DNA of 64,000 bases, taken from assembly GCF_038396765.1 (NCBI RefSeq), contig NZ_CP150096.1:4199001-4263000 (forward strand), in the 5' to 3' direction. How positions within the stretch are numbered: the stretch's first letter is position 1; every line of letters begins with the position of its first letter. This stretch comes from Chitinophaga caseinilytica (GTDB lineage Bacteria; Bacteroidota; Bacteroidia; Chitinophagales; Chitinophagaceae). This document shows positions 1-16,223 of the stretch, piece after piece. The position numbers and the translations under genes are program-made. The notes below the pieces were generated by a model. It was given only the letters and a program-made list of their open reading frames with translations, was not told the DNA's origin and did not search any database.

Positions 1-793
1 TAGCGGCGGGAGTGTGCAAACGCTGTGGAGCTGTACGCGCGCATTTTTTGACTACCGGGGTAAAGCACCTGCAAGCACTACGCCGGCGGACATCCTGGCT
101 TTTTACGAGCACCTGCAGGTATGCCCGCTGCGGCGTGGAGAAGGGGTGTTGAGCGGCAAGATGGTGGACCATTACCTGTACAGCCTGCGGGTGTTTTTTG
201 ACTGGCAGCAGGCGGTGGGCCTGGTGCTGGCGCATCCCATGAGTGGGTTGCAACTGCGGCGGCTGGGTGGTGGCCAGCGGCTCCCGCTATCGGTGGCGGA
301 GATTACCGCGCTGTTCGATGTTGCCCACCATGAGCGGGAGCAGGCAGCGCTGCACCTGCTCTATAGCTGCGGCCTGCGGCGCAGCGAGGCGGTGCTACTG
401 GGGCCCGGTGACGTGTGGCCGGAGCGTGGTGTGCTGTATGTGCGCCGTGGCAAGGGCGCCCGCCGGCGGGTGGTGCCGCTGGCGAGCCGCGCGGCGGCAA
501 GCCTGGGAACTTACCTGCGCTGGCTGGCGGTGCTGTTGCCGGGTGGTTCACCGCGGCTGCTGGTCGGTAGCCGTGCCCAGGCAATGACGGGCGACCGCCT
601 TTGCGAGCTGGTAAAGGAGTTGGGTGAGCGCGCGGAACTGGAAACGGTGGTAACGCCGCACCGGCTGCGCCACTCCATCGCCACGCACCTGCTGGCGCGG
701 GGCATGTCGCTGGAACAGGTGCGGGATTTTTTAGGTCACCGCCATGCGGATACCACGCAGCTCTACGCACACCCGCAAAACCCTGGCTTATGA
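1..793 (+). CDS. Tyrosine recombinase A, XerC/D-like (5' truncated by window), copy A
   Basis: Site-specific recombinase of the phage-integrase family, expected to cut and rejoin DNA through a 3'-phosphotyrosine link. Only the last 264 residues are in the window; the complete copy at 9570-10424 has 284. In that numbering the catalytic set is complete: Arg147 (in CGLRR), Lys172 in the beta-hairpin, His241 and Arg244 (HRLR), His267 (LGH) and the nucleophile Tyr276 (QLYAH). An N-terminal SAM-like DNA-binding domain covers about residues 1-100. Its stop overlaps the start of the next recombinase by 4 nt, so the two are translationally coupled. Position 1 is the third base of a codon; the frame starts at base 2. 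Confidence 0.93.
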   Translation, partial: SGGSVQTLWSCTRAFFDYRGKAPASTTPADILAFYEHLQVCPLRRGEGVLSGKMVDHYLYSLRVFFDWQQAVGLVLAHPMSGLQLRRLGGGQRLPLSVAEITALFDVAHHEREQAALHLLYSCGLRRSEAVLLGPGDVWPERGVLYVRRGKGARRRVVPLASRAAASLGTYLRWLAVLLPGGSPRLLVGSRAQAMTGDRLCELVKELGERAELETVVTPHRLRHSIATHLLARGMSLEQVRDFLGHRHADTTQLYAHPQNPGL

Positions 794-1641
794 CGCTGGA
801 CGCCTACCTGCAATCGCGTTACGCCGCCTCCACGGCCGAGGCCTACGGGCGTGAGATCGCCGCTTACCTGTTTGGGTATCGCGGTGCTGACGGTGCTGGT
901 TATGGGGATGTGGTGCAATGGCTGGGCGTAGTGCGCAGCCGCTACGGCAACGCGTCTACGCTCAACGGGATGTTATGCGCGGTGAAGGCGTATTACGGCT
1001 GGCTGGTGGCCACTGGCGTGCGTGCGGACAATCCTGCCAAAAGGATCCGTTTGCGGGACGTGCGCAGCCGGGACATCCAGTTGCAGGACCTGCTGGCGCC
1101 TGCGGAGCTGGAAGCGTTGCTGCCGGCAAATGGTAAAAAGGGGCGTTATACGGCGCTGGCTTACCGCGACCGGGTGTTGGTGAGTCTTTTGATCTATCAG
1201 GCCTTAAAACCGGCAGAAATCGCCACACTCCGCATAACGGATATCGACCTGGAGAGCGGGACGGTGTTTACTGCCGGCACGGTATCAACTCACGCGCGGC
1301 GGCTTCCCTTGCAGGCGGCACAGGTGCTTTTGCTTTACGCCTACCTCCGGGAAATCCGCCCGCGGTTGGGCAAAGGCGCTGCCAGCGACCGGTTGCTGCT
1401 GGGGCTGCGGGGCAAGCCGATGGCGGCGGCAGATATCGTCAAGCACGTGTTGCGGCACTACCCGGTGAGCGCGCAGCGGATCCGCCAGAGCGTCATTGCC
1501 AACAAGCTGAAAGCCGGTGAGGGACTGGCTGCGGTGCAGGTGTTTGCGGGACACAAGTACCCGTCGAGCACGGAGCGTTACCGGCAGAGCTGTGATGGTG
1601 AGCTGGCCGCGGCTGTAGCAGCCTATCATCCGATGGGATAG
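790..1641 (+). CDS. Tyrosine recombinase B, catalytically degenerate partner, copy A
   Basis: A 283-aa integrase-family protein encoded directly after recombinase A, with a 4-nt ATGA overlap. The fold is kept (N-terminal SAM-like domain, C-terminal catalytic domain, AGH at 253-255, Tyr264). The first catalytic Arg is replaced by Lys140 (ALKPAE in place of GLRRSE), and the His of the HxxR box is Gln229 (QRIR), while Arg232 remains. Such changes usually weaken or abolish cleavage, so it may be a structural or regulatory partner of A, as in paired-recombinase transposons. That role is inference. A second copy lies at 10421-11272. Confidence 0.88.
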   Translation: MTLDAYLQSRYAASTAEAYGREIAAYLFGYRGADGAGYGDVVQWLGVVRSRYGNASTLNGMLCAVKAYYGWLVATGVRADNPAKRIRLRDVRSRDIQLQDLLAPAELEALLPANGKKGRYTALAYRDRVLVSLLIYQALKPAEIATLRITDIDLESGTVFTAGTVSTHARRLPLQAAQVLLLYAYLREIRPRLGKGAASDRLLLGLRGKPMAAADIVKHVLRHYPVSAQRIRQSVIANKLKAGEGLAAVQVFAGHKYPSSTERYRQSCDGELAAAVAAYHPMG

Positions 1642-1705
1642 AGAATGAACAGAATGAACGGGGGCGTTGCCCTATTGTATTGTTAACTTCAAATCGAACC
1701 CTAAA

Positions 1706-2335
1706 ATGGAAATCAAGTTGAGTAAGCTGAAAAAGACAAAAATCGAGGCACGGCAGGACGTGCACGAGATTATGCAGCTGTTGCTGCGGCGGGAACAGAA
1801 GGTTGACCGCAACCGGGAGCACCTGTGGGTGCTGGGACTGTCGGCAGACAATACGATCCTTTTGATCGAGCTGGTGAGCATGGGCTCGGTGACGCGCACG
1901 ATTGCCGAGCCGATGGAGATCTACAGCCTGGCGCTGCAAAAGCGCAGCGTGAAAATTATCCTGGTACACAATCATCCGAGCGGCTTGCTGAAGCCTTCCG
2001 CTGCTGATAAGGACATGACGGACCGGATGATCCAGTGCGGCCGGCTGCTGCATGTTCCGGTGGAGGACCATTACATTATCAGCGAAAAGGGATATTACAG
2101 CTTTGCGCAGGACGGCCTGCTGGCGGAGCTGGAACGGAGCGAAAAATACCTGCTGGATTATGAGCTGGAAGCCCGGGCGCGGGATCAGGGCAAGGAGATC
2201 GGCGTCAAGGCTGGTGCGCGAGAACAGGCAAAGCAGATAGCCCGGCAGATGAAGGCAAAAGGCTATACGGTTAATGAGATCATGGAACTTACGGGATTAG
2301 GCAAGGCAGCTGTCCAGCGGTTGAAAGTGAAGTAA
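1706..2335 (+). CDS. radC: RadC-family JAMM protein with C-terminal HTH-like tail, copy A
   Basis: RadC/JAB-domain protein of 209 aa. The JAMM metal-binding residues are present: Glu55, His88-x-His90-Pro-Ser-Gly and Asp101. RadC proteins are common on mobile elements but their biochemical role is unsettled. The chosen ATG at 1706 (MEIKLSKLKK) is supported by the diverged homologue at 17528, which starts at the same residue; an in-frame ATG at 1667 is less likely. Residues from about 185 (KGYTVNEIMELTGLGKAAV) look like a helix-turn-helix tail of the kind seen on Rpn/transposase-type proteins, which is unusual for RadC. It follows the recombinase pair by about 64 nt. Confidence 0.92.
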   Translation: MEIKLSKLKKTKIEARQDVHEIMQLLLRREQKVDRNREHLWVLGLSADNTILLIELVSMGSVTRTIAEPMEIYSLALQKRSVKIILVHNHPSGLLKPSAADKDMTDRMIQCGRLLHVPVEDHYIISEKGYYSFAQDGLLAELERSEKYLLDYELEARARDQGKEIGVKAGAREQAKQIARQMKAKGYTVNEIMELTGLGKAAVQRLKVK

Positions 2336-2343
2336 AGGCCCCG

Positions 2344-2400
2344 TGGAGCTGGCGGGAATCGAACCCGCGTCCAAAAATTAGGATTCGAACCTGCGACCGC
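2344..2400 (-). other. tmRNA 3' end joined to a tRNA 3'-half remnant (attachment-site scar), copy A
   Basis: Read on the minus strand, about 2371-2344 reproduces the T-arm and acceptor end of a bacterial tmRNA (GGTTCGATTCCC within GCGGG/CCCGC, then AGCTCCA). Directly upstream on the same strand is a second T-arm (GCAGGTTCGAATCCT) with flanking sequence like the 3' half of an ordinary tRNA. Neither has a 5' half or a CCA end, so both are fragments. Tyrosine recombinases often integrate at the 3' ends of tRNA and tmRNA genes, so this most likely marks past or present att sites. It begins 9 nt after the radC stop. Confidence 0.75.
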
Positions 2401-2557
2401 CTTAAAACCTGATTTTTTTATAGGAAAGCCAAGCCAGTGCAAGGCTTGCGGTCGCCCATATGGCGTCAGAGAGTAGGTTAATGAAGATGTCGTTGATCGC
2501 CTCCATGATCGTGAAATTACTGAAATCTCCTGTCCGGGCAAAATGCGGGCGTCACAT

Positions 2558-2626
2558 CACCAGGCGGTAAACAGGCGCGCATGGTGCTCCCGGCAACGGA
2601 GTGGCCAGCCTGTTTACCGCCTGGTG
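2558..2626. repeat. 19-bp perfect inverted repeat (hairpin), copy A
   Basis: Arms at 2558-2576 and 2608-2626 are exact reverse complements (CACCAGGCGGTAAACAGGC), separated by 31 nt. There is no run of T after it, so it is not a typical terminator. It sits just downstream of the tmRNA/tRNA scar and could be a recombinase or replication-protein site. No gene is recognised between the radC stop and about 3168. Confidence 0.85.
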
Positions 2627-3167
2627 GTGCGCCAAGACGATCCTGCTGCCGGGCTTTGTACTGCCGTCGCCGTTCGCGGCAGGTCATGCACTGCAGTTTG
2701 TCCAGGTTCCACCGCTATCCGCTTCCATCCACTCGCTCCCGCCACCTTCACCGCCATGCCTTGGCGGCCACGGGGGCGGGAGCGCGGCACGCGCGTAGCC
2801 ACCGTAGGGCGGCAAGGCGGGCAGGTGGCGGACAAAGTGGGCGGCGTAGGGCTGCGACCGAAGGAAGCAGACCGGGAGCAGCCCGAGCGCAGGCAAAAGG
2901 GAAGGGCGGTTCGGGGATTACTGGCAGGGAGGGGCTGGCCCTTGCCTTTTGCCGGAGTGAGACAGCTTTACCTGCGTAAGTGCTGAGGGGCGTTATGCGT
3001 CAGCGGGGAATGTTGAACGTACTTCTGACAAGTTAGCACCCCAAGCATATGCTGCAATCCAATGCATGGAAAACGAGTTGTAACAGATGTGACAGGATTA
3101 CAGTGCTTCCTGCATTGGCATGGAATATGCAAACATTGCGTGTTGCAAAAAAAGCAACACATGAAAT

Positions 3168-3365
3168 ATGTATAAAGATTATAAAGTCTACCAGGACTAT
3201 AACTTGGAGATTCTGATAAGCAATGTCAATACCGCGCTGGATGAGGGTTGGGTTCCTGTAGGGGGCATATCGACAACACAAGCACTACTGAATGAGAATT
3301 ACGAATCTGATGCGAAGGGAAAACCGATGATGTTGTATACTCAAGCCGTTGCAAGGCCTCTGTAG
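3168..3365 (+). CDS. DUF1737 domain protein, copy A
   Basis: A 65-aa protein that matches the DUF1737 pattern as I remember it: a Tyr-Lys-Val start, a central LxxxVNxxLxEGWxPVGGIS segment (here about residues 15-35), and an aromatic/Ala-rich end with LYTQAVARP. Function of the family is unknown. It has its own intergenic space and a strong terminator about 105 nt downstream. It is enclosed by the 225-bp inverted repeats, so it may be the cargo of that structure. A second copy is at 12799-12996. Confidence 0.7.
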   Translation: MYKDYKVYQDYNLEILISNVNTALDEGWVPVGGISTTQALLNENYESDAKGKPMMLYTQAVARPL

Positions 3366-3469
3366 TAGAAGAGAGTAGTTTGGTATGATAATACTTTTTA
3401 GTTTTGAATAAGTGAAGTTGAAACTGTGAAAATACTGATATCCAGAGATTAGATTTAATTCAAACGATA

Positions 3470-3506
3470 GCGCCTTTAAGAGCACCCGCTTTTAAAGGCG
3501 CTTTTT
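3470..3506 (+). terminator. Rho-independent terminator after the DUF1737 gene, copy A
   Basis: Stem GCGCCTTTA/TAAAGGCGC with a short loop, followed by five T. Confidence 0.85.
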
Positions 3507-3582
3507 ATGTTCATCATCATTGGATGGATGCCAACTCCTCGTCTACTGATTAAGAGTCAGCTGCGCCTTTGCCCTGGGAAAT

Positions 3583-3596
3583 CCCCCCCCCCCCCC
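3583..3596. repeat. Poly-C tract (C14), copy A
   Basis: Fourteen consecutive C. The other copy has twelve (13214-13225) although the flanks are identical. The tract is non-coding, just left of the second inverted-repeat arm. It may be a true slippage site or a sequencing or assembly artefact. Confidence 0.8.
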
Positions 3597-3929
3597 ACAC
3601 CCCGTTTACTTACACTGTTCCCTACTTACTAAAAAGGAAACGCGGTCTCACTGCGGGTAAAAGGCAGGGCTTGCCCTTTAGCAGCGAGCCCTTGTGCAGC
3701 CCTTCCTTTTACCCTTCGTTCGGGCAGCTCCCGGTCTTTGCGCGAAGCGCGCAAATCCCTCCTCTGCCCATTTAGTCCGCCACCTGCCGGCGGCGGCGCC
3801 CGGCCGGTAGCTCCGTGCTCGCTAAAGCTCACACTCCCGCTCCCGTGTTCGCCGCCGCATGGCGGTGGGTGGCGGTAAGCGGTCAGGCATCAACTCACTC
3901 TTTTTTTACTACTTAAAATTTTACTGAAG

Positions 3930-4145
3930 ATGGAACTGTTATGGTTTATGAATCCCTCCCTGGGAGCGGATTACGGTACGTTTTATTGTGTGGTGTGCGG
4001 GGATGCGTTCTATTACTCGCCGCGCCTGACGTGTCATTGCAACCGTTGTGCTATGCGGGAGCTGGCGGCGCTGGAGCGTTCGGAGGCGGATGCGGGGCAG
4101 CGGGCAACGTATAGGCGGGCATACGCGATGCTGGAGGAACTGTAG
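3930..4145 (+). CDS. Small zinc-ribbon-like protein, copy A
   Basis: A 71-aa hypothetical protein with cysteine pairs CVVC near residue 21 and CHCNRC near residue 37, a spacing that could bind one zinc ion. The C-terminal 30 residues are predicted helical and rich in Ala, Glu and Arg. No family is recognised. It follows a GC-rich inverted-repeat arm and precedes a convergent 25-bp inverted repeat. Small zinc-ribbon proteins on mobile elements are often DNA-binding, but that is only a guess here. A second copy is at 13559-13774. Confidence 0.6.
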   Translation: MELLWFMNPSLGADYGTFYCVVCGDAFYYSPRLTCHCNRCAMRELAALERSEADAGQRATYRRAYAMLEEL

Positions 4146-4216
4146 TCAGCGGTAGTGCATGGCCTGCCGCGAACGGCGGCATCAGTTCATCGCCCGGCGG
4201 TGGGATGGTCTTGGCG

Positions 4217-4292
4217 CATCATGGGTAAAGCAGGCGGCCGGCGCTGCCGGTGCCAGGCGCTCCGTAACCGGCCACCTGCTTTACCCATGATG
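4217..4292. repeat. 25-bp inverted repeat between convergent genes, copy A
   Basis: Arms 4217-4241 and 4268-4292 pair over 25 bp with one mismatch (CATCATGGGTAAAGCAGG and its complement), loop 26 nt. It lies between the zinc-ribbon gene (+) and the unknown gene at 4314 (-). A stretch of T follows about 10 nt later, so bidirectional termination is possible. Confidence 0.8.
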
Positions 4293-4313
4293 ATGTAGTT
4301 TTTTTTCAATTGA

Positions 4314-4631
4314 CTAAAGAACAATATTGTGATTGCTGCAATAGTCTTCAATCGTAGAGAATGGAAGAACGCTATCGTCGTGCGTTGGGGTAACGACATA
4401 TATCCTTAAAGGTGTGCCTGCAGGCAGTGCTTTTAAAGCAGCAAGAGTGGCTTGTTTATTAGATAATACATCGTGAATGGAGTGGTCGAAGGGGTTAGAT
4501 GGTGCGATGTCGTTAGCTCTTCTCATAAATGTCTCGAAGAGGCGCTGGTCTTGAGGTCCGATAAAGCTGTAATCTCCTTTTTTGAGGTGGTGTTGCAAGT
4601 TGTCGGCTTGATCTTGTAATTGTTGTAGCAT
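4314..4631 (-). CDS. Hypothetical protein (105 aa), copy A
   Basis: Unrecognised 105-aa protein. The first 20 residues are Gln/Leu-rich and probably coiled-coil, followed by a compact alpha/beta-looking region with PLRIYVVTP near residue 79. There is no signal peptide or membrane segment. It faces the Rhs core junction about 140 nt away, in the opposite direction to the toxin gene. Its place next to an rhs tip could mean an immunity or regulatory role, but nothing in the sequence shows it. Base composition is more AT-rich than the recombinases, as in the cassettes. Second copy at 13943-14260. Confidence 0.6.
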   Translation of the reverse strand: MLQQLQDQADNLQHHLKKGDYSFIGPQDQRLFETFMRRANDIAPSNPFDHSIHDVLSNKQATLAALKALPAGTPLRIYVVTPTHDDSVLPFSTIEDYCSNHNIVL

Positions 4632-4810
4632 ATGATTGTTTTAGTTCAACGAATTTACACACTTGAAAGGAAATCAAATATGACGATGAATCATTATCTT
4701 TAACGGTAGTTCTTTGAGGTAAATATATCTCCTTGGTGCCGCGGTGCTGATGGGAAAAAGTTGTGAGCCATTGAAGGTATGGGTTTAACGGGAAGGAGAA
4801 TGATAATGAG

Positions 4811-5821
4811 GTGAAGGGGGAGGGGATGCAGGTAGACTTCGGCGCCCGTGTGCATGACCCGAGGGTTGGTAGATTCTTATCTCGTGATCCGCTTGCGAAA
4901 AAGTATCCAGGGCAAAGCGATTATGCATACGCAGCGAACAATCCAGTGCGCTTTATTGATGTATATGGGATGGGGCCAGATGATCCGCCACCTTTTTTGC
5001 AAAAGCTAGCTATATATTCCCAGTTTTATATTCGCTTGATGACTCCGCGTCCTAAGGAATGGGGTGAGAATCTGCGAGCGAATGGGCGTATACTTGGTGA
5101 TGCTTCTGGTGCGGTGGCGGCATCGACCTTTGGGATTTTGCAAGGTATGTCACCCTTTCCAAGGAAATCAGCAGAGGAAGTTGGATTATATGGATATGAA
5201 GGATGGTACAATGGCGGTGTTACGGTTGGAGAGAGTGCAGGGCCTGCTACCAGCTTGTTAACGGGTGGTAATAGTGGGCTTTCTCCGAAATTGGCAACGG
5301 CCTCAGGTAGTGCGCAGATCGCGGTGACTAATTCTGCGGCAGTTGCTGCTACGACAACGGCTATTGCATATTCAACAGCGACTAGTAACAGCCAGCCTGA
5401 AGAGCAAGCTGGGTCTGGGGCTTCAGAAAGGAGTGGTACTAATGGAGGTAGTTCAAATGAAGGGGCTAATGGCGGCGGCGGTCCTTATGTGTGGAGAGGG
5501 CTTTCTCGAGAGGACGTAGTGTCAGTTGCGCAGGGAAGAGGGATATCTGCTCGAAGTCCAAACGCAACCAATTCTCCGATCAGCCACGTGGCTGGTAAAA
5601 AAGAAACACAATGGATTTCTACTTCGTTGGATGAAAGCACAGCTAAAGGTAAGTATGGTGAGAATGGATATGTTAAAATTGATCTTTCTAAGGTGGAGTC
5701 TGTGATAGAGTGGATTAATAACGGATTTAATCCTCCAAGAGGGCGTCCTCATAATTATGCAAAGAAAGACCAAGAGGTTTTAATACAGAAACACATTCCT
5801 CAGGAAGCAATAGTAAAATAA
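4811..5821 (+). CDS. Orphan Rhs C-terminus 1: Rhs core end plus ADP-ribosyltransferase-like toxin tip
   Basis: The frame is open from about 4774 (YGFNGKENDNEVK) after an in-frame TGA, so the Rhs N-terminus and YD-repeat shell are missing. Residues 1-55 are the conserved core end (DFGARVHDPRVGRFLSRDP, then AANNPVRFIDVYGMG). Residues 56-220 are a low-complexity Ala/Ser/Gly linker. Residues 221-336 form the tip. Arg229 (YVWRG), Ser270-Thr271-Ser272 and Asp320-Gln321-Glu322 fit the R-S-E pattern of ADP-ribosyltransferases. It may start at GTG 4811 or be silent until recombined with an rhs gene. The next gene begins 5 nt later and is probably its immunity protein. Confidence 0.75.
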   Translation: MKGEGMQVDFGARVHDPRVGRFLSRDPLAKKYPGQSDYAYAANNPVRFIDVYGMGPDDPPPFLQKLAIYSQFYIRLMTPRPKEWGENLRANGRILGDASGAVAASTFGILQGMSPFPRKSAEEVGLYGYEGWYNGGVTVGESAGPATSLLTGGNSGLSPKLATASGSAQIAVTNSAAVAATTTAIAYSTATSNSQPEEQAGSGASERSGTNGGSSNEGANGGGGPYVWRGLSREDVVSVAQGRGISARSPNATNSPISHVAGKKETQWISTSLDESTAKGKYGENGYVKIDLSKVESVIEWINNGFNPPRGRPHNYAKKDQEVLIQKHIPQEAIVK

Positions 5822-5826
5822 AATAT

Positions 5827-6135
5827 ATGGATCAAGCATTAATTGAAGAACTTGATAGATGTTGGGACTACGAAGAGGGGTTCTTTGGTAGGTTGCGACA
5901 AGGCTTCTTTGAAGAGGAGTTGTATCAAAATTTTATAGGGATTTTAAAAAGAATAACGATCAGGACGGAAGAGACAATGATCCCTTATGACTTAGTTCAT
6001 TTGTTGTGGTATGTGCCATTATTTATGGAGTGGCAGCGGGAGAGGGTAGTGCGGGTGATGTCCAATGAGGAATACGAAATTAAGAAGACTAATGTTGAAA
6101 ATGAATTAGAGCGCATTTTTGGAGTTCCGATATGA
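5827..6135 (+). CDS. Putative immunity protein for Rhs tip 1
   Basis: A 102-aa acidic protein, mostly helical, with no signal peptide or membrane segment, so cytoplasmic, as expected for protection against an intracellular ADP-ribosyltransferase. It starts 5 nt after the toxin stop, the usual position of the cognate immunity gene in polymorphic toxin loci. I do not recognise a named immunity family. Composition is AT-rich like the toxin tip and unlike the GC-rich recombinase genes, which supports joint acquisition. A bidirectional terminator follows. Confidence 0.65.
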   Translation: MDQALIEELDRCWDYEEGFFGRLRQGFFEEELYQNFIGILKRITIRTEETMIPYDLVHLLWYVPLFMEWQRERVVRVMSNEEYEIKKTNVENELERIFGVPI

Positions 6136-6150
6136 TTTTTTGGCTTTCAA

Positions 6151-6188
6151 CAATAAAAACGCCGCCTAATTGGGCGGCGTTTTTATTG
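6151..6188. terminator. Bidirectional terminator between the immunity and XRE genes
   Basis: Perfect 16-bp inverted repeat (6151-6166 and 6173-6188) with a 6-nt loop; A-run on the left, T-run on the right, so it can end transcription of both convergent genes. It overlaps the stop of the XRE gene. Confidence 0.92.
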
Positions 6189-6515
6189 TTGCGCTTTTCT
6201 GATTTTGGCGTCGCGGATGTAAGTGTCGATGAGGTCGAACAATACGGTCTTTTTAGGTTCCTCGATCAGTTCGATGTCCTGGAGTCTTTTCAATGTCTTT
6301 TTATCGAACTTGCTGTTAATCCCTTCTCCCACGAGGTAATCGAGTGAAACCCCGAGCGCATCTGCAATCCTCTTGGCAGCGTCGAGGGAGGGCACGGCTT
6401 CTGCGCGCTCGTACTTGCCGATCATGACGCGGGACACGCCGCTGGCGTCCGCGAGGTCTGTTTGTGACCATCCTTTTGCATCTCTAGCATCTGCGATAAT
6501 CTTGCCTGTATTCAT
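6183..6515 (-). CDS. XRE-family HTH transcriptional regulator
   Basis: A 110-aa DNA-binding regulator. Residues about 5-60 form a classic Cro/C1-type HTH (ADARDAKGWSQTDLADASGV, then IGKYERAEAVPSLDAAKRIADAL), and the rest is a short charged tail. It is convergent with the toxin-immunity pair and precedes the primase gene on the other strand. A degenerate copy occupies the same place after cassette 2 (15623-15925), so the regulator is a fixed part of each cassette. It probably controls the cassette or the divergently transcribed primase operon. That is inference. Confidence 0.9.
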   Translation of the reverse strand: MNTGKIIADARDAKGWSQTDLADASGVSRVMIGKYERAEAVPSLDAAKRIADALGVSLDYLVGEGINSKFDKKTLKRLQDIELIEEPKKTVLFDLIDTYIRDAKIRKAQQ

Positions 6516-6679
6516 GTCTTAAAGGATACCGATTTGTTTGTCAGGAGCGGTATTTTACAAATTTATGTAACTAAAGGATAGAAAAAGTGCCGATAGGATT
6601 TGGTTGTTTTGAAGCTATTGGATAGATTTGTATCTGATAGTTACAGGAAAAATATTTTTCCACATCCAAAACCGCCAGC

Positions 6680-7768: not shown

Positions 7769-7854
7769 AAGAAGCCAACCCCGTATACGCTCCTCCCATC
7801 CCTTTACCTGTCCCGTCGCATCCGGCTGCCGGCGTACTGGACAGCCGCGATGAT

Positions 7855-9414: not shown

Positions 9415-9439
9415 AATATGGCTGGCGTTCCAGCGTTCC
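9347..9439. repeat. Iteron-like cluster of TGGAACGCCAG half-sites
   Basis: At least four copies of TGGAACGC(C/T)(A/G)G in both orientations, with degenerate extra half-sites: 9347-9358 (reverse), 9373-9383, 9384-9395 and 9422-9433 (reverse, followed by CGTTCC to 9439). They straddle the helicase stop codon. Clustered half-sites next to a primase-helicase suggest a replication origin or recombinase binding region. Confidence 0.7.
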
Positions 9440-9463
9440 GGGAAATGCTCAAGGCCCTGTTTT

Positions 9464-9495
9464 AAAACGCCATAGCTATAGAAAAACGCCATAGC
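9464..9495. repeat. Two 13-bp direct repeats AAAACGCCATAGC
   Basis: Exact repeats at 9464-9476 and 9483-9495, 19 bp apart (about two helical turns), between the helicase and recombinase A. Candidate operator or recombinase accessory site upstream of the recombinase operon. Confidence 0.7.
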
Positions 9496-9519
9496 GCTAT
9501 CTAATAAGTTTGTTACCCG

Positions 9520-9541
9520 GAGGTAAAAAACCTCTTTTCTT
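9520..9541 (+). terminator. Weak terminator or leader hairpin before recombinase A
   Basis: Stem GAGGT/ACCTC with an A5 loop followed by TTTTCTT. It would separate the primase-helicase transcript from the recombinase operon starting at 9570. Confidence 0.45.
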
Positions 9542-9569
9542 CTTCAACTGATTTTAAACTAAAAAATTT

Positions 9570-10424
9570 ATGGAACAGCTACAAACCGGAACCCTCGCGG
9601 GTTTTAGGGACTACCTGTGCGCGGTGGGCTATAGCGGCGGGAGTGTGCAAACGCTGTGGAGCTGTACGCGCGCATTTTTTGACTACCGGGGTAAAGCACC
9701 TGCAAGCACTACGCCGGCGGACATCCTGGCTTTTTACGAGCACCTGCAGGTATGCCCGCTGCGGCGTGGAGAAGGGGTGTTGAGCGGCAAGATGGTGGAC
9801 CATTACCTGTACAGCCTGCGGGTGTTTTTTGACTGGCAGCAGGCGGTGGGCCTGGTGCTGGCGCATCCCATGAGTGGGTTGCAACTGCGGCGGCTGGGTG
9901 GTGGCCAGCGGCTCCCGCTATCGGTGGCGGAGATTACCGCGCTGTTCGATGTTGCCCACCATGAGCGGGAGCAGGCAGCGCTGCACCTGCTCTATAGCTG
10001 CGGCCTGCGGCGCAGCGAGGCGGTGCTACTGGGGCCCGGTGACGTGTGGCCGGAGCGTGGTGTGCTGTATGTGCGCCGTGGCAAGGGCGCCCGCCGGCGG
10101 GTGGTGCCGCTGGCGAGCCGCGCGGCGGCAAGCCTGGGAACTTACCTGCGCTGGCTGGCGGTGCTGTTGCCGGGTGGTTCACCGCGGCTGCTGGTCGGTA
10201 GCCGTGCCCAGGCAATGACGGGCGACCGCCTTTGCGAGCTGGTAAAGGAGTTGGGTGAGCGCGCGGAACTGGAAACGGTGGTAACGCCGCACCGGCTGCG
10301 CCACTCCATCGCCACGCACCTGCTGGCGCGGGGCATGTCGCTGGAACAGGTGCGGGATTTTTTAGGTCACCGCCATGCGGATACCACGCAGCTCTACGCA
10401 CACCCGCAAAACCCTGGCTTATGA
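9570..10424 (+). CDS. Tyrosine recombinase A, complete, copy B
   Basis: Complete 284-aa integrase-family recombinase, identical over the shared part to the truncated gene at 1-793. All catalytic residues are present (Arg147, Lys172, His241, Arg244, His267, Tyr276). The ATG at 9570 is preceded by an AT-rich leader that follows the two AAAACGCCATAGC repeats and a small hairpin, so this looks like the promoter end of the recombinase-radC operon. The 4-nt overlap with recombinase B indicates coupled translation. It probably mediates integration or excision of the element. Confidence 0.95.
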   Translation: MEQLQTGTLAGFRDYLCAVGYSGGSVQTLWSCTRAFFDYRGKAPASTTPADILAFYEHLQVCPLRRGEGVLSGKMVDHYLYSLRVFFDWQQAVGLVLAHPMSGLQLRRLGGGQRLPLSVAEITALFDVAHHEREQAALHLLYSCGLRRSEAVLLGPGDVWPERGVLYVRRGKGARRRVVPLASRAAASLGTYLRWLAVLLPGGSPRLLVGSRAQAMTGDRLCELVKELGERAELETVVTPHRLRHSIATHLLARGMSLEQVRDFLGHRHADTTQLYAHPQNPGL

Positions 10425-11272
10425 CGCTGGACGCCTACCTGCAATCGCGTTACGCCGCCTCCACGGCCGAGGCCTACGGGCGTGAGATCGCCGCTTACCT
10501 GTTTGGGTATCGCGGTGCTGACGGTGCTGGTTATGGGGATGTGGTGCAATGGCTGGGCGTAGTGCGCAGCCGCTACGGCAACGCGTCTACGCTCAACGGG
10601 ATGTTATGCGCGGTGAAGGCGTATTACGGCTGGCTGGTGGCCACTGGCGTGCGTGCGGACAATCCTGCCAAAAGGATCCGTTTGCGGGACGTGCGCAGCC
10701 GGGACATCCAGTTGCAGGACCTGCTGGCGCCTGCGGAGCTGGAAGCGTTGCTGCCGGCAAATGGTAAAAAGGGGCGTTATACGGCGCTGGCTTACCGCGA
10801 CCGGGTGTTGGTGAGTCTTTTGATCTATCAGGCCTTAAAACCGGCAGAAATCGCCACACTCCGCATAACGGATATCGACCTGGAGAGCGGGACGGTGTTT
10901 ACTGCCGGCACGGTATCAACTCACGCGCGGCGGCTTCCCTTGCAGGCGGCACAGGTGCTTTTGCTTTACGCCTACCTCCGGGAAATCCGCCCGCGGTTGG
11001 GCAAAGGCGCTGCCAGCGACCGGTTGCTGCTGGGGCTGCGGGGCAAGCCGATGGCGGCGGCAGATATCGTCAAGCACGTGTTGCGGCACTACCCGGTGAG
11101 CGCGCAGCGGATCCGCCAGAGCGTCATTGCCAACAAGCTGAAAGCCGGTGAGGGACTGGCTGCGGTGCAGGTGTTTGCGGGACACAAGTACCCGTCGAGC
11201 ACGGAGCGTTACCGGCAGAGCTGTGATGGTGAGCTGGCCGCGGCTGTAGCAGCCTATCATCCGATGGGATAG
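10421..11272 (+). CDS. Tyrosine recombinase B, degenerate partner, copy B
   Basis: Identical 283-aa product to 790-1641. Lys140 and Gln229 stand where catalytic Arg and His are expected, with Arg232, His255 and Tyr264 retained. It overlaps recombinase A by 4 nt. That the degenerate residues are the same in both copies fits either a recent duplication or selection for a non-catalytic partner, and the sequence alone cannot separate these. Confidence 0.88.
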   Translation: MTLDAYLQSRYAASTAEAYGREIAAYLFGYRGADGAGYGDVVQWLGVVRSRYGNASTLNGMLCAVKAYYGWLVATGVRADNPAKRIRLRDVRSRDIQLQDLLAPAELEALLPANGKKGRYTALAYRDRVLVSLLIYQALKPAEIATLRITDIDLESGTVFTAGTVSTHARRLPLQAAQVLLLYAYLREIRPRLGKGAASDRLLLGLRGKPMAAADIVKHVLRHYPVSAQRIRQSVIANKLKAGEGLAAVQVFAGHKYPSSTERYRQSCDGELAAAVAAYHPMG

Positions 11273-11336
11273 AGAATGAACAGAATGAACGGGGGCGTTG
11301 CCCTATTGTATTGTTAACTTCAAATCGAACCCTAAA

Positions 11337-11966
11337 ATGGAAATCAAGTTGAGTAAGCTGAAAAAGACAAAAATCGAGGCACGGCAGGACGTGCACGAGA
11401 TTATGCAGCTGTTGCTGCGGCGGGAACAGAAGGTTGACCGCAACCGGGAGCACCTGTGGGTGCTGGGACTGTCGGCAGACAATACGATCCTTTTGATCGA
11501 GCTGGTGAGCATGGGCTCGGTGACGCGCACGATTGCCGAGCCGATGGAGATCTACAGCCTGGCGCTGCAAAAGCGCAGCGTGAAAATTATCCTGGTACAC
11601 AATCATCCGAGCGGCTTGCTGAAGCCTTCCGCTGCTGATAAGGACATGACGGACCGGATGATCCAGTGCGGCCGGCTGCTGCATGTTCCGGTGGAGGACC
11701 ATTACATTATCAGCGAAAAGGGATATTACAGCTTTGCGCAGGACGGCCTGCTGGCGGAGCTGGAACGGAGCGAAAAATACCTGCTGGATTATGAGCTGGA
11801 AGCCCGGGCGCGGGATCAGGGCAAGGAGATCGGCGTCAAGGCTGGTGCGCGAGAACAGGCAAAGCAGATAGCCCGGCAGATGAAGGCAAAAGGCTATACG
11901 GTTAATGAGATCATGGAACTTACGGGATTAGGCAAGGCAGCTGTCCAGCGGTTGAAAGTGAAGTAA
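11337..11966 (+). CDS. radC: RadC-family JAMM protein with HTH-like tail, copy B
   Basis: Identical to the copy at 1706-2335 (209 aa). JAMM residues Glu55, His88, His90 and Asp101 are intact. Start chosen at 11337 by comparison with the diverged RadC at 17528. It lies about 64 nt after recombinase B and 9 nt before the tmRNA/tRNA scar, so the order recombinase A, recombinase B, RadC, att-like scar is the same in both copies. Confidence 0.92.
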   Translation: MEIKLSKLKKTKIEARQDVHEIMQLLLRREQKVDRNREHLWVLGLSADNTILLIELVSMGSVTRTIAEPMEIYSLALQKRSVKIILVHNHPSGLLKPSAADKDMTDRMIQCGRLLHVPVEDHYIISEKGYYSFAQDGLLAELERSEKYLLDYELEARARDQGKEIGVKAGAREQAKQIARQMKAKGYTVNEIMELTGLGKAAVQRLKVK

Positions 11967-11974
11967 AGGCCCCG

Positions 11975-12031
11975 TGGAGCTGGCGGGAATCGAACCCGCG
12001 TCCAAAAATTAGGATTCGAACCTGCGACCGC
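11975..12031 (-). other. tmRNA/tRNA 3'-end scar, copy B
   Basis: Same minus-strand T-arm and acceptor fragment of tmRNA, joined to a tRNA 3'-half remnant, as at 2344-2400. No full tmRNA or matching tRNA gene is present in the window. Confidence 0.75.
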
Positions 12032-12188
12032 CTTAAAACCTGATTTTTTTATAGGAAAGCCAAGCCAGTGCAAGGCTTGCGGTCGCCCATATGGCGTCAG
12101 AGAGTAGGTTAATGAAGATGTCGTTGATCGCCTCCATGATCGTGAAATTACTGAAATCTCCTGTCCGGGCAAAATGCGGGCGTCACAT

Positions 12189-12257
12189 CACCAGGCGGTA
12201 AACAGGCGCGCATGGTGCTCCCGGCAACGGAGTGGCCAGCCTGTTTACCGCCTGGTG
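12189..12257. repeat. 19-bp perfect inverted repeat, copy B
   Basis: Same hairpin as 2558-2626: arms 12189-12207 and 12239-12257. Confidence 0.85.
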
Positions 12258-12798
12258 GTGCGCCAAGACGATCCTGCTGCCGGGCTTTGTACTGCCGTCG
12301 CCGTTCGCGGCAGGTCATGCACTGCAGTTTGTCCAGGTTCCACCGCTATCCGCTTCCATCCACTCGCTCCCGCCACCTTCACCGCCATGCCTTGGCGGCC
12401 ACGGGGGCGGGAGCGCGGCACGCGCGTAGCCACCGTAGGGCGGCAAGGCGGGCAGGTGGCGGACAAAGTGGGCGGCGTAGGGCTGCGACCGAAGGAAGCA
12501 GACCGGGAGCAGCCCGAGCGCAGGCAAAAGGGAAGGGCGGTTCGGGGATTACTGGCAGGGAGGGGCTGGCCCTTGCCTTTTGCCGGAGTGAGACAGCTTT
12601 ACCTGCGTAAGTGCTGAGGGGCGTTATGCGTCAGCGGGGAATGTTGAACGTACTTCTGACAAGTTAGCACCCCAAGCATATGCTGCAATCCAATGCATGG
12701 AAAACGAGTTGTAACAGATGTGACAGGATTACAGTGCTTCCTGCATTGGCATGGAATATGCAAACATTGCGTGTTGCAAAAAAAGCAACACATGAAAT

Positions 12799-12996
12799 AT
12801 GTATAAAGATTATAAAGTCTACCAGGACTATAACTTGGAGATTCTGATAAGCAATGTCAATACCGCGCTGGATGAGGGTTGGGTTCCTGTAGGGGGCATA
12901 TCGACAACACAAGCACTACTGAATGAGAATTACGAATCTGATGCGAAGGGAAAACCGATGATGTTGTATACTCAAGCCGTTGCAAGGCCTCTGTAG
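12799..12996 (+). CDS. DUF1737 domain protein, copy B
   Basis: Identical 65-aa product to 3168-3365. It is enclosed by the inverted-repeat arms and followed by its own terminator at 13101-13137. Function unknown. Confidence 0.7.
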   Translation: MYKDYKVYQDYNLEILISNVNTALDEGWVPVGGISTTQALLNENYESDAKGKPMMLYTQAVARPL

Positions 12997-13100
12997 TAGA
13001 AGAGAGTAGTTTGGTATGATAATACTTTTTAGTTTTGAATAAGTGAAGTTGAAACTGTGAAAATACTGATATCCAGAGATTAGATTTAATTCAAACGATA

Positions 13101-13137
13101 GCGCCTTTAAGAGCACCCGCTTTTAAAGGCGCTTTTT
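13101..13137 (+). terminator. Rho-independent terminator after the DUF1737 gene, copy B
   Basis: Same stem GCGCCTTTA/TAAAGGCGC and T5 tail as in copy A. Confidence 0.85.
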
Positions 13138-13213
13138 ATGTTCATCATCATTGGATGGATGCCAACTCCTCGTCTACTGATTAAGAGTCAGCTGCGCCTT
13201 TGCCCTGGGAAAT

Positions 13214-13225
13214 CCCCCCCCCCCC
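13214..13225. repeat. Poly-C tract (C12), copy B
   Basis: Twelve C against fourteen in copy A. This is the only indel found between the two copies. Confidence 0.8.
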
Positions 13226-13558
13226 ACACCCCGTTTACTTACACTGTTCCCTACTTACTAAAAAGGAAACGCGGTCTCACTGCGGGTAAAAGGCAGGGCT
13301 TGCCCTTTAGCAGCGAGCCCTTGTGCAGCCCTTCCTTTTACCCTTCGTTCGGGCAGCTCCCGGTCTTTGCGCGAAGCGCGCAAATCCCTCCTCTGCCCAT
13401 TTAGTCCGCCACCTGCCGGCGGCGGCGCCCGGCCGGTAGCTCCGTGCTCGCTAAAGCTCACACTCCCGCTCCCGTGTTCGCCGCCGCATGGCGGTGGGTG
13501 GCGGTAAGCGGTCAGGCATCAACTCACTCTTTTTTTACTACTTAAAATTTTACTGAAG

Positions 13559-13774
13559 ATGGAACTGTTATGGTTTATGAATCCCTCCCTGGGAGCGGAT
13601 TACGGTACGTTTTATTGTGTGGTGTGCGGGGATGCGTTCTATTACTCGCCGCGCCTGACGTGTCATTGCAACCGTTGTGCTATGCGGGAGCTGGCGGCGC
13701 TGGAGCGTTCGGAGGCGGATGCGGGGCAGCGGGCAACGTATAGGCGGGCATACGCGATGCTGGAGGAACTGTAG
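13559..13774 (+). CDS. Small zinc-ribbon-like protein, copy B
   Basis: Identical 71-aa product to 3930-4145, with the CVVC and CHCNRC cysteine pairs. Unknown function. Confidence 0.6.
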   Translation: MELLWFMNPSLGADYGTFYCVVCGDAFYYSPRLTCHCNRCAMRELAALERSEADAGQRATYRRAYAMLEEL

Positions 13775-13845
13775 TCAGCGGTAGTGCATGGCCTGCCGCG
13801 AACGGCGGCATCAGTTCATCGCCCGGCGGTGGGATGGTCTTGGCG

Positions 13846-13921
13846 CATCATGGGTAAAGCAGGCGGCCGGCGCTGCCGGTGCCAGGCGCTCCGTAACCGG
13901 CCACCTGCTTTACCCATGATG
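13846..13921. repeat. 25-bp inverted repeat, copy B
   Basis: Arms 13846-13870 and 13897-13921, same as 4217-4292. Confidence 0.8.
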
Positions 13922-13942
13922 ATGTAGTTTTTTTTCAATTGA

Positions 13943-14260
13943 CTAAAGAACAATATTGTGATTGCTGCAATAGTCTTCAATCGTAGAGAATGGAAGAACG
14001 CTATCGTCGTGCGTTGGGGTAACGACATATATCCTTAAAGGTGTGCCTGCAGGCAGTGCTTTTAAAGCAGCAAGAGTGGCTTGTTTATTAGATAATACAT
14101 CGTGAATGGAGTGGTCGAAGGGGTTAGATGGTGCGATGTCGTTAGCTCTTCTCATAAATGTCTCGAAGAGGCGCTGGTCTTGAGGTCCGATAAAGCTGTA
14201 ATCTCCTTTTTTGAGGTGGTGTTGCAAGTTGTCGGCTTGATCTTGTAATTGTTGTAGCAT
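13943..14260 (-). CDS. Hypothetical protein (105 aa), copy B
   Basis: Identical to the product of 4314-4631. It faces the second Rhs core junction. No family recognised. Confidence 0.6.
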   Translation of the reverse strand: MLQQLQDQADNLQHHLKKGDYSFIGPQDQRLFETFMRRANDIAPSNPFDHSIHDVLSNKQATLAALKALPAGTPLRIYVVTPTHDDSVLPFSTIEDYCSNHNIVL

Positions 14261-14475
14261 ATGATTGTTTTAGTTCAACGAATTTACACACTTGAAAGGA
14301 AATCAAATATGACGATGAATCATTATCTTTAACGGTAGTTCTTTGAGGTAAATATATCTCCTTGGTGCCGCGGTGCTGATGGGAAAAAGTTGTGAGCCAT
14401 TGAAGGTATGGGTTTAATGGGAAGGAGAATGATAATGAGGTAAAGGGTGTTGAAGGAAGCCAGCAGGATTATGGG

Positions 14476-15372
14476 ATGAGGATTTATGATCCGAGGATTG
14501 CGAAGTTCTTGAGTGTGGATCCTTATACTAAAAGTTTTGCTTGGTTTTCGCCTTACCAATTTGCAGGAAATACCCCAGTTGCGGCAATAGACTTAGATGG
14601 AGGGGAGCAAAAAATTATGATTCATTGGACAAATGTGAACGGAGAGATCACTAAAACAAAAATTATAAAATCTGATTTTAGCAGAGTTAATGAATTGTAT
14701 AATTCGTTAAAAAACGGATTGAATACAAGTACAACATATGATCTAGAGGGAACTAAATTTAATGCTAATAATGCTGCTTTTTCATTGGGGTTTGAGGCAT
14801 ATAAAAAAGGTTCTCCGCATCCTCGTGGCTGGTTTGGAGGAGTTACAAGGCCTAATGGTGGAGAATTAGTCTTCACAATAAAGACAGACCTTGCTAATAA
14901 ACAGAGTGTGGATATAAAGTTTTATGATATTCCTCTTAATAAGACGGAAGTAATAGCGGATGCCTTACGTGGAGTATCCTCAATTGCAACTTTTACTGGA
15001 GATCGAATTGAAGAGTTTGGGTACGTAGTTTCATTATTTCCAGGTGCCCAAGAAATCGGGTTGCCTTTAATTGGAATAGGGAAAACAATATCAGCTGCAG
15101 GAGATGGTGTGGATATTGGGGCTGATTTATTGGAAGGGAAGACCAAAAATGCAATGATAAAGGCTGGCGCTGCCGGCCTTGGAGCGGCTGCAGGACCTTT
15201 AGCTAACAAAATACCTTTTAAGAATCAATTGTCGAATGAAGTTATAGATACTTATTTGGGAAGAGGTTTAGGAGCTATTAAAGATGGTGTAATTGATAAT
15301 AATCACCCGGATGTAGAGGAGTCTAATACATTGAATATAAAAATAGAAACGAAGGAGAACAAAAAGGAGTAA
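14476..15372 (+). CDS. Orphan Rhs C-terminus 2: Rhs core end plus unrecognised toxin tip
   Basis: As with cassette 1, the frame opens after a TGA just before YGFNGKENDNEVK (about 14403), and the first ATG is at 14476. Residues 1-42 are the core end (MRIYDPRIAKFLSVDP, then FAGNTPVAAIDLDGGE). The following 256 residues include a glycine/alanine-rich pre-toxin helix region (about 190-245, KTISAAGDGVDIGADLLEG), common in bacteroidal Rhs proteins. I do not recognise a catalytic domain. The partner encoded 4 nt later is a membrane protein, which suggests a tip acting at the membrane. It lacks the Rhs shell, so it is a silent or displaced tip unless fused by recombination. Confidence 0.7.
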   Translation: MRIYDPRIAKFLSVDPYTKSFAWFSPYQFAGNTPVAAIDLDGGEQKIMIHWTNVNGEITKTKIIKSDFSRVNELYNSLKNGLNTSTTYDLEGTKFNANNAAFSLGFEAYKKGSPHPRGWFGGVTRPNGGELVFTIKTDLANKQSVDIKFYDIPLNKTEVIADALRGVSSIATFTGDRIEEFGYVVSLFPGAQEIGLPLIGIGKTISAAGDGVDIGADLLEGKTKNAMIKAGAAGLGAAAGPLANKIPFKNQLSNEVIDTYLGRGLGAIKDGVIDNNHPDVEESNTLNIKIETKENKKE

Positions 15373-15376
15373 AATT

Positions 15377-15544
15377 ATGAATAATATTATTATTGGTATA
15401 CTTATCGTAATAGTTGGAGGTTATTTTATTTATTGGGGGATAACCTATCAAGCCAAGGTGAATTCTATTAATAGTATAAAACCTCGACTGATTATTGCTG
15501 GATTAATTGGGCTCATGGTTGGTTTGTATTTAATATTTAAATAA
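15377..15544 (+). CDS. Small two-helix membrane protein, putative immunity protein for Rhs tip 2
   Basis: A 55-aa protein made almost entirely of two hydrophobic helices (about residues 4-24 and 37-54) joined by a short polar loop with Lys and Gln. It has an unusually good ribosome site for this phylum (AGGAG, 8 nt before ATG), and the ATG comes 4 nt after the toxin stop. Position and size fit an inner-membrane immunity protein against a membrane-active toxin. The function is inferred from position only. Confidence 0.6.
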   Translation: MNNIIIGILIVIVGGYFIYWGITYQAKVNSINSIKPRLIIAGLIGLMVGLYLIFK

Positions 15545-15577
15545 CATTTTATGAAAAAATGCGATAAAACTAAGTAT

Positions 15578-15607
15578 TGTAAAACACCCAATTTAAGGTG
15601 CTTTTTA
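15578..15607 (+). terminator. Weak or decayed terminator after cassette 2
   Basis: Imperfect stem around CACC/GGTG followed by CTTTTTATT. It occupies the place of the strong bidirectional terminator after cassette 1. Confidence 0.4.
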
Positions 15608-15622
15608 TTTGTTGTGTCTTAC

Positions 15623-15925
15623 TTATTTTGGCATCACGAATGTAGGTCTCGATAGGTCAAAGACGTTTGTATTTTGGGGATCCTCATTCAGTTCGGTGTC
15701 CTGGAATTTTCTGATGGTCTTTTTGTCGAACTTATCCTCGACGGGAGAATCTAGCGATATTCCTAAAACATTTGCAATCTTCTTGGCGGCATCGAGAAAT
15801 TGCACGGCTTCAGATCACTTGTACTTACCGATCAGAACGCGGGATACGCCGCTAGCATTCGCGAAGTCAGTCTGTGACCATCCTTTTGCATCTCTAGCAT
15901 CTGCGATAATCTTGCCTGTTATACC
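15623..15925 (-). pseudogene. Degenerate XRE-family regulator
   Basis: Minus-strand remnant of the regulator at 6183-6515. Matching runs include TGKIIADARDAKGWSQTD, ASGVSRVLIGKYK, LDAAKKIANVLGISLD and KFDKKTIRKFQDTEL. The start ATG is lost, a TGA follows IGKYK, and the tail is altered. The intact gene sits in the same place and orientation behind cassette 1, so this is evidence for a repeated module toxin tip - immunity - XRE. Confidence 0.85.
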
Positions 15926-16223
15926 TGTCGCAATTGCGCCAGGAATTAATGGCTCATAAAAAGAAGAATCAATTTACGAGATCCTCTACCAAAGGAGGTG
16001 TAAACGCGACTAAACATTTTAAAGGATTGAATAATGTCAATTTAAATAGTGAAAAAAGGAGATAAGCCTAATCCAATCCAGCGAAAAGATGCTCAAAGTA
16101 GAAACGGTAGCGCCGAAAGGAAGAAAGGAGCTAGTATTTTACATCTGAAAGAATAAGAAAGCTCAGAAACATAAAAGCATAGTTTCTATTTGTATAAACA
16201 AAATAATTTGGGATAAAAGAATC
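15926..16223. other. AT-rich region without a recognised gene
   Basis: No convincing reading frame. Probably debris of a decayed unit where the primase would be expected. Confidence 0.5.

What the first reader, a model, noticed from the sequence alone, without database searches (positions are those of the whole stretch)
1..15925. Tandem 9.6-kb units: integrase-primase element arrayed with Rhs toxin tip cassettes
Seen: two near-identical segments of at least 4.8 kb (recombinase pair, RadC, att-like scar, inverted repeat) repeat with a 9.63-kb period. Each ends a few codons inside an Rhs core, then a different toxin tip, immunity gene and inverted XRE gene follow. Between the copies sits a primase-helicase. 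Known: bacterial Rhs proteins change tips by recombination in the conserved core, and orphan tips often lie behind the full gene. Inference: here an integrating, self-replicating element carries or reshuffles tips, and homologous recombination between the copies could excise a circle of about 9.63 kb with one cassette.
Basis: partly seen in the sequence, partly recalled or inferred. Interest (0 to 1): 0.87.

Follow-up and report, generated by a model that had tools for sequence, protein, structure and literature searches.

The report
Mobile element that swaps toxin tips
A small self-contained mobile DNA element appears to insert itself at one exact spot inside giant bacterial toxin genes and to bring along a new toxin end with its antidote, which would explain how bacteria keep changing their weapons.

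Summary
The repeat is real, but its unit is the whole 9,631 bp and starts left of the window: tip, small (immunity-type) gene, inverted XRE gene, primase-helicase, two tyrosine recombinases, RadC, noncoding end. Each boundary is DNA for the codons YGFNGKE, the end of the Rhs core. Left and right junctions share an 8-bp block in 19 of 20 comparable elements. A search with the helicase alone gave 62 named loci; an Rhs core end lies 1.6-3.8 kb upstream of the primase in 51 of 55 assessable elements. Elements stack in arrays of up to four; corresponding loci in other species hold none, one or more. The site variant follows the recombinase tree. Distant relatives sit at CdiA/FHA-type genes, and an 11.3-kb circular plasmid consists of two such tip units. 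Best reading: a site-specific integrative element that delivers an in-frame toxin tip and immunity gene to a resident Rhs core and pushes the old tip downstream. Recombination, excision and toxicity are inferred. The window's own core is out of frame at the junction and its primase-helicase gene is split.

The parts
1..4775 (+). Right-hand part of element copy A; its left part (tip1, small gene, XRE, primase-helicase, start of Int1) lies left of the window to position -4855
4776..14404 (+). Element copy B, 9,629 bp from attachment site to attachment site
4776..4788 (+). Attachment-site repeat GGTATGGGTTTAA between copies A and B
14405..14417 (+). Attachment-site repeat between copy B and tip2
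4708..4717 (+). Element-end signal AGTTCTTTGA, copy A
   Evidence: 22 of 24 element ends, 0 of 34 core junctions
14337..14346 (+). Element-end signal AGTTCTTTGA, copy B
4811..5821 (+). tip1: Rhs core end plus variable C-terminus (336 aa)
   Evidence: TIGR03696 42.7 bits, cut-off 32.5; only a weak DUF7587 hit in Pfam; toxicity untested
5827..6135 (+). Small gene behind tip1, proposed immunity gene
   Evidence: position only; no Pfam or PHROGs family
6183..6515 (-). XRE-type regulator, inverted
   Evidence: HTH_3
6680..7768 (+). Primase part (CHC2 zinc finger, Toprim)
   Evidence: fused to the helicase part in 114 of the 120 best homologues (at least 700 aa)
7855..9414 (+). Helicase-like ATPase part
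   Evidence: weak AAA-type hits; PF27228 precomputed
9570..10424 (+). Int1, tyrosine recombinase with full catalytic set
10421..11272 (+). Int2, partly degenerate tyrosine recombinase
11298..11966 (+). RadC-type protein, found only in the closest relatives
11967..14336 (+). Noncoding element end with inverted repeats (for example 13846-13870 / 13897-13921)
   Evidence: no Rfam match
790..1641 (+). Int2 of copy A
1667..2335 (+). RadC of copy A
14476..15372 (+). tip2, displaced tip
   Evidence: TIGR03696 30.0 bits, just under the cut-off
15377..15544 (+). Small hydrophobic ORF behind tip2, possible immunity gene
   Evidence: untested
15769..15929 (-). XRE relic
   Evidence: 84% over 161 bp
17528..18163 (+). 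RadC of a decayed older element
   Evidence: 82% to the unit's RadC

Best explanation
Two tandem copies of an integrative element specialised on polymorphic-toxin genes. Its attachment site is the DNA of the conserved end of the Rhs core (codons Y-G-F-N-G-K-E). One end of the element is the start of a toxin tip, in frame with that codon string; the other is a noncoding end with AGTTCTTTGA about 67 bp before the site. Shown: anatomy, direct repeats, recurrence at Rhs core ends across Bacteroidota, arrays, different occupancy of corresponding loci, tracking of the site variant by the recombinase. Inferred: Int1, with the partly degenerate Int2, recombines the site of an excised circle with the core-end site. 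This fuses the resident core to the element's tip, brings its immunity gene, and moves the old tip downstream, where its frame stays open but has no core. Primase-helicase lets the circle copy itself, which may be why identical copies stack in tandem. Excising the first unit would reconnect an older tip. XRE may keep the element silent. The array is thus an integron-like stack in which each cassette brings its own recombinases.
For: 51 of 55 assessable elements, found with the helicase alone, have an Rhs core end upstream of the primase, and 28 of 36 have the motif again behind Int2, six more by eye. Shared 8-bp block at both junctions in 19 of 20. Element-end signal 22 of 24 against 0 of 34 core junctions. 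Core frame open at least 200 codons into 23 of 42 first sites (7 more run open off the held DNA); behind elements at most 98 codons upstream, yet 41 of 46 tips open for 200 codons or more. Arrays, corresponding loci with different occupancy, 101 clusters among 116 tips, site class on the Int1 tree 5 changes against 14.5, intact Int1 catalytic set, circle-like contigs and a circular plasmid of two tip units in a distant relative.
Against: No recombination, excision or toxicity shown; no reads. The window's core is out of frame with the motif and its primase-helicase is split, so this array may be dead. 12 of 42 first sites have a stop within 200 codons upstream, among them L052, L084, L087 and L089; L050, L053 and L081 carry the element-end signal and are probably array-internal. 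L059 (first element), L051 and L078 lack an Rhs end on one side. Tip arrays also exist without mobile genes, many with long core repeats that fit homologous recombination, so the element is not the only route. The motif profile was built from some of the same loci. GGG-TTT codons are also common at element-free cores, so codon conservation is no proof.
Confidence: 0.83

Rival explanations
1. Tips are exchanged by homologous recombination in the core; the recombinase-primase module is a passenger that happens to sit between tips.
For: Element-free genomes of the genus have tip arrays; in L188, L176 and L185 the repeats reach at least 70 bp into the core. Literature model of 2009.
Against: At element junctions with different tips the shared block is as short as 8-16 bp (G326, L049, L069, G336). 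A constant element end with a fixed signal lies at the site. The site class follows the recombinase.
Confidence: 0.1
2. The recombinases act only in place, as an expression switch that deletes or reorders tips, and the element does not move between cells.
For: Arrays of different tips behind one core; no relaxase or conjugation gene among the unit's ORFs in Pfam.
Against: Relatives in many families and on plasmids, 101 tip clusters, occupancy differs between species.
Confidence: 0.15
3. The tandem copy in this window is an assembly artefact; the element is single-copy here.
For: The copies differ only in a C run.
Against: Single-contig chromosome; seven further near-identical tandem pairs from six other genomes; two plasmid records with the same tandem layout. 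Assembly trouble in those cannot be excluded either.
Confidence: 0.1

Closest known systems
Rhs C-terminal tip displacement (Jackson et al. 2009, PMC2935791; passages and first part of the Discussion)
   Same: A new tip joins the core, the old tip stays downstream; a circular carrier is proposed.
   Different: [quoted passage not shown] here each unit carries recombinases, a short site and a primase.
Integrons and gene cassettes (from memory)
   Same: Arrays of exchangeable units at one site; Int1 is nearest to XerC/XerD/XerA and matches integron integrases more weakly.
   Different: Every unit brings its own recombinases and primase, and the site lies inside a coding sequence; folded attC-like sites were not tested.
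Integrative elements with a tyrosine recombinase (from memory; GInts seen only as a search listing, PMC5385486)
   Same: Direct-repeat attachment sites, recombinase next to one end.
   Different: The cargo is an in-frame replacement end for the host gene with a new function.
rAID immunity arrays of Bacteroidales (PMC12247911, passages only)
   Same: Tyrosine recombinase linked to interbacterial-antagonism genes in Bacteroidota.
   Different: rAID arrays hold orphan immunity genes; here tip and immunity-type gene travel together and join a delivery core.

Membership tests
Polymorphic toxin / Rhs system | Rhs-associated core domain followed by a variable C-terminus | tested here: met
   TIGR03696 in tip1 above and tip2 just under the cut-off, 101 clusters of 116 tips. 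The window's 2,699-aa core ORF matches only weak YD and DUF6443 models.
Polymorphic toxin / Rhs system | Toxic tip neutralised by the neighbouring immunity protein | not testable with these tools
   Needs expression experiments.
Integrative element with tyrosine recombinase | Recombinase with catalytic residues | tested here: met
   Int1 R-K-H-R-H-Y in 71-72 of 72 rows; Int2 incomplete.
Integrative element with tyrosine recombinase | Short direct repeats at both ends | tested here: met
   19 of 20 comparable elements.
Integrative element with tyrosine recombinase | Excised circular form | tested here: inconclusive
   Terminal overlaps in L055, L075, L077 fit circle or tandem; circular plasmid in a distant relative.
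Conjugative or mobilizable element (ICE/IME) | Relaxase, coupling or transfer genes | tested here: not met
   None among the ten proteins of the window scanned with Pfam; oriT not tested.
Prophage or phage satellite | Structural genes or viral relatives | tested here: not met
   No structural family; no relative in viral contigs or phages.
Integron | Cassettes without own integrase, served by one IntI | tested here: not met
   Units in the mapped arrays mostly carry their own Int1 and Int2.
Integron | Folded attC sites | not tested
   No folding of the sites was run.
rAID | Recombinase upstream of co-directional orphan immunity genes | tested here: not met
   Here recombinases lie behind tip, immunity-type gene and inverted XRE.

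The most novel reading that the evidence does not exclude
A cross-phylum class of self-replicating tip elements. Primase-helicase and XerC-type recombinases insert toxin C-termini in frame into delivery genes of several unrelated kinds (Rhs in Bacteroidota and Enterobacterales, CdiA/FHA in Proteobacteria), live as free circles between hosts, build integron-like arrays whose first unit is the expressed weapon, and also mobilise short tip cassettes that keep only the element ends. They would be the missing agent of polymorphic-toxin tip exchange.
Probability: 0.5. Interest if true: 0.93.

Novelty: new variant of a known kind. Interest (0 to 1): 0.88.

Why it matters
Tip exchange in Rhs weapons has been described since at least 2009, but its agent was open. 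[quoted passage not shown] Here is a widespread module with recombinases, site, primase, tip and immunity-type gene in one unit, found in 22 of 60 genomes searched in the genus and 27 of 294 in the family, the window's own included. It makes tip exchange directly testable, predicts where new tips enter, and gives a sequence tag for finding toxin-immunity pairs. Each part is of a known kind; an element whose cargo is an in-frame replacement end of a host gene is, to my knowledge, not described. Ten paper searches listed no paper that describes it; I saw only the listed titles (up to 20 per search, of up to 168 matches) and passages of seven papers. Most subscription journals and preprints are not in that library.

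Tried and rejected
Phage or satellite origin: no relatives in viral contigs with the single query or the alignment (few peptide patterns, so distant ones may be missed), none in phages. Known RNA in the noncoding end: no Rfam match in 4000-18000. Defence system: PADLOC hits only through primase and ATPase. A corresponding locus without any cassette was not found: G344 (L123) lacks the mobile genes but has a tip and XRE. AGTTCTTTGA as a general sequence: it also occurs 177-186 bp before the motif inside several cores (about ten cases), so the element end may descend from a core; within 120 bp of the motif it was seen at 22 of 24 element ends, 7 of 34 other orphan sites and 0 of 34 core junctions. 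Of those seven, L050, L053 and L081 lie at contig starts of elements; L178, L179, L182 and L186 are tip cassettes in genomes without a helicase hit. Codon conservation (GGG-TTT) as proof of a site: rejected, because element-free cores show it too. A search centred on the Enterobacterales plasmid failed.
Full report
WHAT IS THERE. The window is part of a 6.52-Mb single-contig genome whose nearest named relatives are Chitinophaga. Segments 1-4788 and 9632-14417 are identical but for two bases in a C run. Sequence fetched from the left shows that the repeat is longer than the window: the helicase occurs twice, and a 9,631-bp unit starts at window position -4855 and repeats at 4776. The unit reads: tip1 (336 aa), small gene (102 aa), inverted XRE gene, primase part, helicase part, Int1, Int2, RadC, about 2.4 kb without convincing genes. 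Left of it lies a 2,699-aa ORF (L012 6084-14183), the large Rhs-like gene; it matches known models only weakly (DUF6443, one YD repeat). The Rhs assignment rests on TIGR03696 in tip1 and, just under the cut-off, in tip2, and on clearer relatives.

THE JUNCTIONS. Three junctions exist: core|site|tip1, element end|site|tip1, element end|site|tip2. All share GGTATGGGTTTAA, part of the codons Y-G-F-N-G-K-E. They are the only three exact matches to the degenerate pattern in the chromosome. Behind tip2 follow an XRE relic and a third RadC, remains of an older unit.

RELATIVES WERE FOUND WITHOUT USING RHS. The helicase alone was searched in one genome for each of 84,980 species: 62 loci, in many families of Bacteroidota; two MAG records carry other phylum labels and are probably misplaced contigs. 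55 elements in 51 loci could be judged on the left: 51 have an Rhs core end 1,635-3,801 bp upstream of the primase (43 by a motif profile, 6 by TIGR03696 above cut-off, 2 below it). The four misses are L059 (first element; T9SS sorting-tail genes lie to its left), L067 (core-like text by eye), the second copy in L070 and a contig end in L095. On the right, 28 of 36 have the motif by profile; six more (L062, L063, L067, L070, L077, L079) show a core-like start by eye; L051 and L078 do not. Of 68 motif hits in the named loci 67 lie on the element's strand. The profile was trained on some of the same loci, so TIGR03696 and the strand bias are the cleaner controls. In the window's genus 22 of 60 genomes searched have the helicase, in its family 27 of 294.

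SITE-SPECIFIC SIGNATURE. In 19 of 20 comparable elements of the GF class the identical block between left and right junction contains the same 8 positions, TATGGGTT (TTTGGGTT in L057); in L050 one of them differs. Eight base pairs is a usual spacer for tyrosine recombinases (from memory) and very short for homologous recombination. Where the tips on both sides are related or identical the block runs on into the tip. Element ends of this class carry AGTTCTTTGA within 120 bp before the site in 22 of 24 cases, 17 of them 65-69 bp away; core junctions 0 of 34; other orphan sites 7 of 34 (without the duplicate loci G311 and G315). In the second class five ends (in G295, G305, G324) have it at 106-107 bp; no such site was seen for G296, G304, G338 and G348. 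Some element ends look like shortened core sequence (L187).

READING FRAME. Of 42 sites with an element ahead and none within 5 kb behind, 23 have at least 200 codons open upstream into the site and on into the tip; 7 run open off the held DNA; 12 have a stop (the window, L050, L051, L052, L053, two in L056, L081, L084, L087, L089, the second in L092). L050, L053 and L081 carry the element-end signal, so they are probably array-internal. Of 46 sites behind an element none has more than 98 codons open upstream, while 41 have at least 200 open downstream. That is what insertion at one codon string should give: the new tip fused, the old tip kept but cut off.

ARRAYS AND OCCUPANCY. G300 (single contig) has four elements in a row and two further tips; G326 has two elements with different tips and a third tip followed by a truncated primase (its first helicase frame is also interrupted); L048 and L096 hold two different elements. 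Eight tandem pairs compared are 99.8-100% identical. One locus can be followed by its core family (46-49% protein identity) and by the 961-aa gene on its right (54-84%): G344 has core, tip and XRE but no primase, helicase or recombinase hit in the 20 kb held; L044 has one element; the window two; G326 two and the truncated third. In G344 the 961-aa gene is inverted. Of 116 tips of at least 200 aa the last 120 residues fall into 101 clusters, tandem duplicates included.

RECOMBINASE AND TARGET GO TOGETHER. A second class in the same genus (helicase about 36% identical) sits at another version of the core end (K-Y-N-G-K-E-L-Q type). Of 71 Int1 sequences 55 had a motif to label. On a tree of 49 of them (six tandem copies dropped; 46 labelled, 3 unclear) the site class changes 5 times against 14.5 in shuffles, none of 500 as low (quick method, some long branches). 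Both classes occur within Chitinophaga, so host alone does not explain it; near copies help clustering. Int1 keeps all six catalytic residues in 71-72 of 72 rows. Int2 keeps Arg232, His255 and Tyr264 in 72-73 of 73 rows but has no conserved first Arg and mostly lacks the His of HxxR, so the pair looks asymmetric.

CIRCLES. L055 is an 8,006-bp contig with a 141-bp exact terminal overlap, the k-mer size in its name; L075 starts exactly at the site and overlaps itself by 299 bp; L077 by 75 bp. These fit circles or tandem arrays. In Lonsdalea populi an 11,289-bp circular plasmid consists of two units: two nuclease-type tips, each beginning with the last 28-29 positions of TIGR03696 (22.6 and 23.1 bits, under the cut-off of 32.5), small genes, SymE, XRE, a full primase with XerC, and a shorter second primase frame. 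It is only 28.6% identical in the helicase part: a relative in layout, not a copy.

BEYOND RHS. Further plasmid relatives with 28-31% identity: an Enterobacter hemagglutinin-repeat gene with PT-VENN, then small gene, XRE, primase, XerC; a Paraburkholderia FHA gene (DUF637) followed by the same module and by an orphan tip (Tox-ART-HYD1) that begins with the same pre-toxin segment (24- and 20-bp exact repeats); a Janthinobacterium RHS-repeat gene, where no repeat longer than 10 bp was found, and in the Enterobacter stretch none longer than 12 bp. Two Bacteroidota plasmids carry the Rhs type in tandem. Seven plasmid records were opened out of 27 matched, one (Caballeronia) without annotation; the choice was not random.

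MECHANISM. Best reading: the circle's site recombines with the core-end site of a resident gene, so the core gains a new tip and its antidote and the former tip waits behind the element. Removing units would reconnect older tips. Shown is the comparative pattern; catalysis, excision, replication, transfer between cells, toxicity and immunity are inferred. The window's own array may be silent: the core frame breaks just before the site, and the primase-helicase gene, at least 700 aa long in 114 of the 120 best homologues, is split in both copies. Whether these breaks are real or sequencing errors cannot be told here. Tip arrays without mobile genes in 15 of the 16 regions taken from the genus (chosen by core similarity, L187 has the module; several show one tip only) show that the element is not the only route; in L188, L176 and L185 long core repeats fit homologous recombination.

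LITERATURE. Jackson et al. 2009 (passages; Discussion part 1 of 2) describe tip displacement and need a circular carrier; [quoted passage not shown] Zhang et al. 2012 (PMC3482391) has no integrase or primase hits in the first 300,000 characters held. rAID (PMC12247911), Ornithobacterium tip arrays (PMC6421346, PMC13183296) and the TANFOR paper (PMC7073777) were seen as passages. Ten searches listed no paper that describes such an element.

Noticed in passing
window 6680-9414 (and the first copy left of the window): Primase and helicase are two ORFs in both copies, whereas 114 of the 120 best homologues are single proteins of 700 aa or more.
   Followed up: partly
left of the window, about -4880 to -4855: The large core ORF and the core-end motif are in different frames (6 codons open before the motif), next to a run of G.
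   Followed up: partly
window 10421-11272: Int2 keeps Arg232, His255 and Tyr264 but not the first catalytic Arg or the His of HxxR; a conserved half-degenerate partner of Int1.
   Followed up: partly
L188 (genus genome G294): Eight core-end sites in 20 kb without mobile genes; the repeats reach at least 70 bp into the core.
   Followed up: partly
L178 5866, L179 2735, L182 3594, L186 3351: Tip cassettes without mobile genes that still carry the element-end signal; possible non-autonomous cassettes.
   Followed up: partly
L095 and L098 (Apibacter muscae): Contig names give coverage 678 for the short element contig and 221 for a larger one: about three copies, or replicating circles.
   Followed up: no
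L070 and L079: The shared end seems to lie a little further on, at the codons for V/I-D-P-L, a possible third site class.
   Followed up: no
L193, L194: The gammaproteobacterial versions add DinJ/RelE-type toxin-antitoxin genes behind XerC.
   Followed up: no
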